Positions 4,204-5,667 of a stretch of DNA of 14,136 nt are shown here, one piece after another. Numbering within the stretch: position 1 is the stretch's first letter; the number at the start of each line of letters is the position of its first letter. Position numbers and translations under genes: made by a program. Source of the DNA: an uncultured Opitutaceae bacterium (GTDB lineage: Bacteria; Verrucomicrobiota; Verrucomicrobiia; Opitutales; Opitutaceae). The DNA lies in NCBI GenBank assembly GCA_937128785.1, contig CAKZMS010000532.1:1-14136 (forward strand). Reading direction: 5' to 3'. The notes below the pieces were generated by a model that saw nothing but the letters and a program-made list of their open reading frames with translations, was not told the origin of the DNA and ran no database searches.

Positions 4204-5610
4204 TTATTTCAGCGAATCGGGGTGGCGGGGGCCGCGTCCATAGTAGGGCGGAGCGTCGAAATCGAAACTGATGTCCGCGTTCTCGCGGGGATCTCCCGTC
4301 ATCGCCAGGTCGCGCGTCAGCAGTTGCGCATGCTCCCGCAGCACCGCCGCGTAAGCCGGGTCGGCGGCGACGTTGTGCAGTTGATCAGGGTCGGTTCGGA
4401 CATCGTAGAGTTCCTCGGGGGGGCGCTGACCGAAGCTCCATTCCCACGCCTGGCGGTGCGCTTCGTCCCGGTCCCGGTTCTCGATGATGTAAGTCTTGGT
4501 GGGGCCATTGTCGGTGTCACCGAACCAGACACCGGGGATGGCGGCGTTTTCCCAATCAGCGATGCCATTGGGTCCGCGCCGGGGCGTGTAGTTACGGATG
4601 TAGAGAAAATCCGGTGTGCGCACCGCCCGCGAAGGGTAGCCGCCCATGTCGGGAGCCCGTTGGGAGGGGACGTGCCGTTCCTTGCCGGTCAGCACGTAGG
4701 GTCGCAGGGCGGATTCATCCCCCTCCAGAATCGCCGGCAGCAGGTTCTCGCCCGTCATGTCGGGGTGGGGAGCCACCCCCGCCGCGGCCAGGAAAGTAGG
4801 GGCCAAGTCGGTCAGGGAAACGAATCCCTGAAAGACCTGCTGGGAAGCGACCCGGTCCGGCCAACGGATCGCCAGGGGCACCCGCGCACCGCTGTCGTAG
4901 AGGTTGCTCTTGCAGCGGGGGAACGGCATGCCGTGGTCGCCGGTGATGACCACGATCGTGTTCTCGGCTTCGCCGGATGCTTCGAGCATCTCGAGCGCGG
5001 CCGCCACGTCCGAGTCGAAGCGTTCCACGTCAAAAGAATAATCCGCCACATCGCTACGGATCTCCTCGGAGTCGGGGTAGTGGCCGAACAGTTTGATGTC
5101 GGCGAGGTTCATACCGGAGGCAACGCCGGTGCCGGCTTCGTAACCGCGATGCGGGTCACTGGCGCCGAGCCAGAAGAAGAACGGTTTCTCCGCGTCACGC
5201 TTGTCCAGAAACTCGGCAAATCCCCCGGAAAATTCGGGTCCGGCCGGATGGCGATCCGCCCACTTGCCCAGCAGTTTTCCGGGCCCCCAGGATTTGCGCC
5301 AACGTCCGGTGGCGTATCCGGCGTCTTCGAGCAGATGCGGAAACGTTTCGAGGGTCTCGTCCAGGGTGCTCCACAGGTTGGCTCCCGGGCCGAGCCGCCA
5401 ATGGTATTGTCCCGTCAGGATGGCGTTGCGCGATGGGGTGCACGATGGGGACGAAATGTAGGCGTGGTGAAAGAGGGCTCCCTCTTCGGCGATCTGATCA
5501 AAGGCCGGGGTCTGCACCACGGTATCATTCGCGTAGGCGGAGGCATGCGGCCAGCCCCAGTCATCGGCGATCCAAAACAGGATATTGGGTCGGGAATCGG
5601 CGGCGGCCAC
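4204..5610 (-). CDS. Sulfatase, CTPSR type, heparan N-sulfatase-like; signal peptide cut off by a TGA
   Basis: 468 codons from GTG 5608-5610. Type I sulfatase: hydrolyses sulfate esters or sulfamates using a formylglycine made from Cys57 in SCTPSRNAILTG (the CxPSR signature). Calcium-ligand motifs are visible: NILFWIADDWGW (Asp16-Asp17) and TGDHGMPF (Asp225-His226). DPHR at 152-155 and the KSNLYDSGARVP segment (about 234-245) are also present. The order of these motifs and the ANLWSTL, AGPEF and FVSLTDLAPTFL segments resemble the N-sulfoglucosamine sulfohydrolase (SGSH-like) group, so a glycosaminoglycan or similar sulfated polysaccharide is a plausible substrate. This is an inference; the substrate cannot be read from sequence. 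Catalytic domain appears complete, with LYDVRTDPDQLHN near the end. Oddity: codon-for-codon upstream is a good signal peptide, but TGA 5611-5613 separates it from the enzyme (see next entry). TAA stop. Confidence 0.9.
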   Translation of the reverse strand: MAAADSRPNILFWIADDWGWPHASAYANDTVVQTPAFDQIAEEGALFHHAYISSPSCTPSRNAILTGQYHWRLGPGANLWSTLDETLETFPHLLEDAGYATGRWRKSWGPGKLLGKWADRHPAGPEFSGGFAEFLDKRDAEKPFFFWLGASDPHRGYEAGTGVASGMNLADIKLFGHYPDSEEIRSDVADYSFDVERFDSDVAAALEMLEASGEAENTIVVITGDHGMPFPRCKSNLYDSGARVPLAIRWPDRVASQQVFQGFVSLTDLAPTFLAAAGVAPHPDMTGENLLPAILEGDESALRPYVLTGKERHVPSQRAPDMGGYPSRAVRTPDFLYIRNYTPRRGPNGIADWENAAIPGVWFGDTDNGPTKTYIIENRDRDEAHRQAWEWSFGQRPPEELYDVRTDPDQLHNVAADPAYAAVLREHAQLLTRDLAMTGDPRENADISFDFDAPPYYGRGPRHPDSLK

Positions 5611-5667
5611 TCAGGCGATGCAGGTGAGCAGGAGAGCCAAGCGAAGACGAAGCGTCGGAGAGTTCAT
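5611..5667 (-). pseudogene. Orphaned sulfatase signal-peptide coding sequence ending in TGA
   Basis: In the same frame as the sulfatase, ATG 5665-5667 encodes MNSPTLRLRLALLLTCIA, then TGA at 5611-5613, then directly the GTG and AAADSRPNILF of the enzyme. The peptide has the n-region arginines and hydrophobic core of a Sec signal, and the 'VAAAD' after the stop would supply the cleavage site. Reading the TGA as a sense codon restores one ordinary secreted sulfatase. The gene therefore carries a nonsense mutation, uses readthrough or reinitiation at the abutting GTG, or contains a sequencing error. Other genes in the window end in TGA (2918-2920, 7173-7175, 11165-11167), so TGA is a normal stop here. 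Confidence 0.8.

What the first reader, a model, noticed from the sequence alone, without database searches (positions are those of the whole stretch)
5608..5667. In-frame TGA splits a sulfatase from its own signal peptide
Frame-preserving translation across TGA 5611-5613 joins a clear Sec signal peptide (MNSPTLRLRLALLLTCIA) to an intact sulfatase (VAAADSRPNILF...). Everything downstream, including the CTPSR formylglycine site and metal motifs, looks intact, so the gene has not decayed. The stop is immediately followed by GTG, allowing termination-reinitiation that would make a cytoplasmic sulfatase. That would be unusual, because sulfatases of this type normally act outside the cytoplasm. Alternatives are a recent nonsense mutation, programmed readthrough or a sequencing error.
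Basis: partly seen in the sequence, partly recalled or inferred. Interest (0 to 1): 0.72.

Follow-up and report, generated by a model that had tools for sequence, protein, structure and literature searches.

The report
Nonsense codon in sulfatase signal peptide
In one draft genome pieced together from environmental DNA, a gene for a normally exported sulfate-removing enzyme carries a single stop codon inside its export signal; the relatives read here lack it, and it is most likely an ordinary isolated mutation or a sequencing error rather than a new translation trick.

Summary
On the minus strand, ATG 5667 opens an 18-codon signal-peptide-like segment, TGA 5613-5611 ends it, and GTG follows at once and runs into a complete S1 sulfatase. 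Of 397 stops ahead of long open frames sampled in this genome, 2 show such a layout; the other is a gene boundary. Of the 119 best-listed homologues, 117 have an N-terminal extension of 15+ residues, and 10 of 10 loci read on DNA are uninterrupted there.

Special mechanisms find no support: TGA ends 62 of 130 long ORFs, the one passing tRNA-Sec match is tRNA-Ser, and folds are ordinary. The genome is a fragmented bin (774 contigs, 82% complete). Of 125 family matches in it, 1 other gene has an isolated in-frame stop, and two sulfatases of genus relatives carry one each. Best reading: a recent nonsense mutation or a consensus error; reads, not available here, would decide. Restart at GTG is possible but probably a by-product. 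"Intact" needs a correction: three body residues occur in none of 119 homologues.

The parts
5614..5667 (-). ATG plus 17 codons of a Sec signal-peptide-like segment (MNSPTLRLRLALLLTCIA)
   Evidence: maximum 11-residue Kyte-Doolittle mean 2.22; lies where homologues have signal peptides
5611..5613 (-). in-frame TGA at codon 19, at the junction of the hydrophobic core and the cleavage region
   Evidence: no stop in this stretch in the 10 distinct loci read on DNA
5608..5610 (-). GTG directly after the TGA, possible restart codon; no Shine-Dalgarno-like sequence seen by eye
4204..5610 (-). S1 sulfatase ORF, 468 aa from GTG (PF00884, PF16347; CTPSR at about 5428-5442)

Best explanation
This is the orthologue of an exported S1 (SGSH/S1_8-like) sulfatase of Opitutaceae. 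In this one assembled genome it bears an isolated nonsense codon in its signal peptide, as either a recent real mutation or an error in the metagenome consensus. If real, ribosomes starting at 5667 stop after 18 codons and export of this sulfatase is lost. Some restart at the adjacent GTG may give a small amount of unexported enzyme, as a side effect and not as an evolved switch. Shown: the stop, the homologues' uninterrupted N-termini, conservation of the body, and other isolated stops in this bin and its genus. Inferred: that it is recent, and any restart. Not decided: mutation or error.
For: 117 of the 119 best-listed homologues have at least 15 residues before the NILF column. Ten distinct loci were read on DNA (L003-L005, which are the same contigs as L021-L023, and L024-L030; 10 of the 80 loci), and all ten have an uninterrupted N-terminal extension. 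L021 and L023 share neighbouring genes with the window. Since the split from the 88% homologue P0002 the body has changed at the same pace: 14 changes against 13, 27 unresolved. NG86 dN/dS against L003, L004, L005 and L024 is 0.083-0.125 (dS 1.5-2.1, near saturation). So any loss looks recent. The bin is fragmented (774 contigs, 82.37% complete). Of 125 family matches in it (PF00884 67, PF03781 5, PF07583 6, PF00005 30, PF00593 12, PF00069 5), 1 has an internal stop: a TAG in a Ser/Thr-kinase/FGE-domain gene, frame open on both sides. In the genus search 2 of 150 listed PF00884 rows (my hand count; 16 of them G000's own; 491 matches in all, the rest not listed) have one TAG each, read. At 1 of 125, about half an isolated stop would be expected among this genome's 67 sulfatase-domain matches.
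Against: Outside C11 the sampled part of the bin looks clean. Of 18 stops with coding signal on both sides in 343,539 bases, none looks to me like an internal stop; they read as gene boundaries or weak signal, judged by eye and not by homology. 0 of 67 PF00884 matches have a stop inside the domain. So the bin is not riddled with errors. GTG exactly after the TGA is what a working restart would look like, although valine and alanine codons are common at the end of a signal peptide (recalled).
Confidence: 0.9

Rival explanations
1. Functional relocation: the stop is fixed, and restart at the adjacent GTG makes a cytoplasmic sulfatase that the cell uses.
For: GTG abuts the TGA. Signal-less sulfatases exist in this genome, at least five of 56 N-termini. 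A related clade (C526:4505, 43% identical to the window gene; 39-41% to L003-L005) starts directly at the domain. 96 of 128 first ATGs of long frames here have no Shine-Dalgarno-like sequence (rough, since the first ATG is not always the true start), so its absence before the GTG says little. An FGE homologue is encoded (C401, 1.6e-80), so maturation in the cytoplasm is conceivable.
Against: None of the 10 loci read on DNA shows it. The body shows no shift in rate, and three residues never seen in homologues, two at strongly conserved sites, point to slight decay or errors and not to a new function.
Confidence: 0.05
2. Programmed readthrough or recoding of the TGA (selenocysteine, suppressor or code change) gives a full-length exported enzyme.
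For: The frame is kept across the stop. One match passes the tRNA-Sec model's cut-off (49 against 47 bits).
Against: ARAGORN calls that match tRNA-Ser with anticodon TGA, and the second-best tRNA-Ser with anticodon CGA; the other seven weaker matches were not typed. TGA ends 62 of 130 long ORFs. Folds around the stop are ordinary (z -0.51 and 0.61). The stop is absent from the 10 loci read. Missing tRNA-Sec is weak evidence in an 82% complete bin, and SelA/SelB were not searched for.
Confidence: 0.02
3. The gene naturally starts at the GTG and the upstream signal-like segment is chance.
For: An automatic gene call starts at GTG (P0001, 468 aa). Two of 119 homologues, P0049 and P0119, have short N-termini; the DNA ahead of them was not seen.
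Against: 117 of 119 homologues have the extension. The layout occurs at 2 of 397 stops, the other being a gene boundary. The M-x-S-P opening recurs in close homologues.
Confidence: 0.02

Closest known systems
S1 sulfatases with SGSH-type C-terminus (PF00884 + PF16347; best solved relatives are called S1_8A and S1_8B sulfatase, 9bb9 and 9bbd)
   Same: domain content, CTPSR formylglycine site, overall alignment
   Different: signal peptide cut by TGA; three body residues not seen in 119 homologues
Isolated premature stops (recent pseudogenes or consensus errors) in metagenome bins
   Same: single in-frame stop with the frame open on both sides; further cases at C11 of this genome and in L177 and L178
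   Different: here the stop lies in the signal peptide and a start codon follows at once

Membership tests
S1 sulfatase (PF00884) | Sulfatase domain above the curated cut-off | tested here: met
   128.3 bits against a cut-off of 25
S1 sulfatase (PF00884) | C/S-x-P-S-R formylglycine motif | tested here: met
   CTPSR at residues 76-80 of the 5667 frame; motif definition recalled
S1 sulfatase (PF00884) | Catalytic activity on a sulfated substrate | not testable with these tools
   no assay; three unusual body residues leave activity open
Exported sulfatase | Uninterrupted signal peptide in frame with the domain | tested here: not met
   TGA at codon 19; uninterrupted in the three genus orthologues
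Selenoprotein / TGA recoding | tRNA-Sec in the genome | tested here: inconclusive
   one match above the Rfam cut-off (49 against 47 bits) is tRNA-Ser(TGA) by ARAGORN; none other passes, but the genome is 82% complete
Selenoprotein / TGA recoding | Stable stem-loop just after the TGA | tested here: not met
   z-scores -0.51 and 0.61
Selenoprotein / TGA recoding | SelA/SelB machinery | not tested
   no search was made
Programmed readthrough | Stop codon conserved among orthologues | tested here: not met
   10 of 10 distinct loci read on DNA are uninterrupted; 117 of 119 homologous proteins have the extension
Isolated nonsense mutation or consensus error | Sense codon in the raw reads or in sister strains | not testable with these tools
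   no reads held; two searches gave no genome of the same species (may leave out very near records); closest other homologue 88% identical, its DNA not seen

The most novel reading that the evidence does not exclude
TGA followed at once by GTG acts as a fork: mostly termination and restart giving a cytoplasmic sulfatase, with occasional readthrough giving the exported form, so that one gene serves two compartments.
Probability: 0.02. Interest if true: 0.65.

Novelty: already known. Interest (0 to 1): 0.1.

Why it matters
As it stands it is a caution: isolated stops occur in metagenome bins, and gene callers then shorten an exported enzyme into an apparently cytoplasmic one (as P0001), which would mislead counts of secreted sulfatases. 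If the allele is real and fixed, it would be a small example of how one member of a large sulfatase set loses export in a single step.

Tried and rejected
A clean decay signal was sought and not found. The window is not an outlier for departures at conserved columns (33rd of 120 at 97% conservation, 45th at 90%, ties included), and its rate equals that of P0002. The one hint of decay or extra errors: 8 of 120 sequences, the window among them, have 3 or more residues dissimilar to everything seen at that column.

A second apparent broken signal peptide in the same genome (C526, 4505-5380) was rejected: its relatives L006, L010 and L007 also start close to the domain.

L146 has a signal-like segment ahead of a stop, but it is taken as the end of another gene ahead of a sulfatase with its own signal peptide. 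A conserved TAG shared by sulfatases of G005 and G007 (similar lengths) was suspected and rejected: the two are different proteins with stops at different places. Absence of a Shine-Dalgarno sequence was dropped as an argument against restart. In one search, 56 of the 67 PF00884 matches were read; the 11 left out do not begin near the start of the profile (second pieces of a gene or genes cut by a contig end). The FGE locus L176 was fetched but not studied.

Literature: the six search listings (one search returned none) showed no title about a sulfatase with a stop in its signal peptide. Only PMC6388578 was opened, for passages. This is no proof of absence from print.

Full report
What is there. 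On the minus strand, ATG 5667-5665 opens MNSPTLRLRLALLLTCIA, TGA 5613-5611 ends it, and GTG 5610-5608 opens a 468-aa ORF ending at 4204. That ORF is an S1 sulfatase (PF00884 5.1e-37, PF16347 6e-15) with CTPSR. Its best solved relatives are called S1_8A and S1_8B sulfatases.

Is the split real? Yes. One search scored 8000 candidates and listed the best 120 of 4833 hits. Of 119 of these (P0002-P0120, without the window's own P0001), 117 carry at least 15 residues ahead of the NILF column; the exceptions are P0049 and P0119, whose upstream DNA was not seen. Several share the opening M-x-S-P. Ten distinct loci read on DNA (L003-L005, equal to L021-L023, and L024-L030; 10 of the 80) all have an uninterrupted extension. 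The genus orthologues L003-L005 are 76-78% identical. Among L021-L030, L021 shares three neighbours (the 375-aa protein at 2918, the methyltransferase at 1842 and part of the MBL protein at 317), L023 two (S41 and the 375-aa protein) and L022 a 54-residue piece of the MBL protein; L024-L030 share none. In the window plus 64 loci of the same genome (343,539 bases), 397 stops are followed by at least 200 open codons; the signal-then-stop-then-start layout occurs at 2, and the other one is a gene boundary.

Has the gene decayed? Not much. Since the split from P0002 (54 of 460 body residues differ), 14 changes fall on the window's branch and 13 on the other, 27 unresolved. NG86 dN/dS is 0.083-0.125 against four relatives, with dS near saturation. 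The window is unremarkable for departures at conserved columns. Against this, three residues (W32, S211, P417) occur in no homologue and are dissimilar to all that do; 8 of 120 sequences have three or more such residues. W32 stands three residues before the DD pair, at a column where the other 118 letters are C (80) or A (38). These could be early decay or further consensus errors.

Could it be a special mechanism? TGA ends 62, TAG 44 and TAA 24 of 130 long ORFs, so TGA is not reassigned. One match passes the tRNA-Sec cut-off, 49 against 47 bits, but ARAGORN types it as tRNA-Ser(TGA). The folds are ordinary. No Rfam match at gathering score and no tRNA lies in the window. The stop is absent from the loci read. 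Restart at GTG is feasible: 96 of 128 first ATGs of long frames have no Shine-Dalgarno-like sequence (a rough count). It has no positive support.

How common are such stops? In this bin, 1 of 125 matches to six families has an internal stop: a TAG in a kinase/FGE-domain gene at C11 2746. In the genus search 2 of 150 listed sulfatase rows (hand count; 16 are G000's own; 491 matches in all) have one, at different places in different proteins of G007 and G005. A scan for stops with coding signal on both sides gave 18 in the sampled 343,539 bases; by eye none is a clear internal stop, not tested by homology. Isolated premature stops are thus rare but present: at 1 of 125, about 0.5 would be expected among the 67 sulfatase-domain matches (a few genes count twice there).

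Would a cytoplasmic sulfatase be odd? Of 56 sulfatase N-termini read in this genome (of 67 matches), at least five (C733, C191, C666, C409:1606, C122) have their first ATG within about ten residues of the domain, and C526:4505 belongs to a clade that starts at the domain. In two Kiritimatiellales strains, 354 and 339 sulfatases had a signal peptide, against 167 and 141 predicted cytoplasmic (PMC6388578, passages; sums mine).

What stays open. The protein cluster P0001 counts two member sequences on one listed contig; the second member could not be seen. The DNA of the 88% homologue P0002 could not be reached.

Verdict. This is a genuine in-frame stop, in the sequence as given, in the signal peptide of an otherwise conserved sulfatase, best read as a recent nonsense mutation or a consensus error. 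The choice between the two needs the reads. Low interest.

Noticed in passing
L175:2746 (G000 contig C11): In-frame TAG inside a Ser/Thr kinase plus FGE-sulfatase-domain gene, frame open on both sides.
   Followed up: partly
L177 and L178: Two different sulfatases of genus relatives G007 and G005 each carry one in-frame TAG within the domain.
   Followed up: partly
L134, C526 4505-5380: A sulfatase clade that starts at the domain (L006, L007, L010 also); in this genome it has no in-frame ATG before the domain and may start at TTG.
   Followed up: partly
window 5572-5574, 5035-5037, 4417-4419: Body residues W32, S211 and P417 of the sulfatase are seen in none of 119 homologues.
   Followed up: partly
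whole genome G000: 67 matches to the sulfatase family in an 82% complete 3.6 Mb genome.
   Followed up: no
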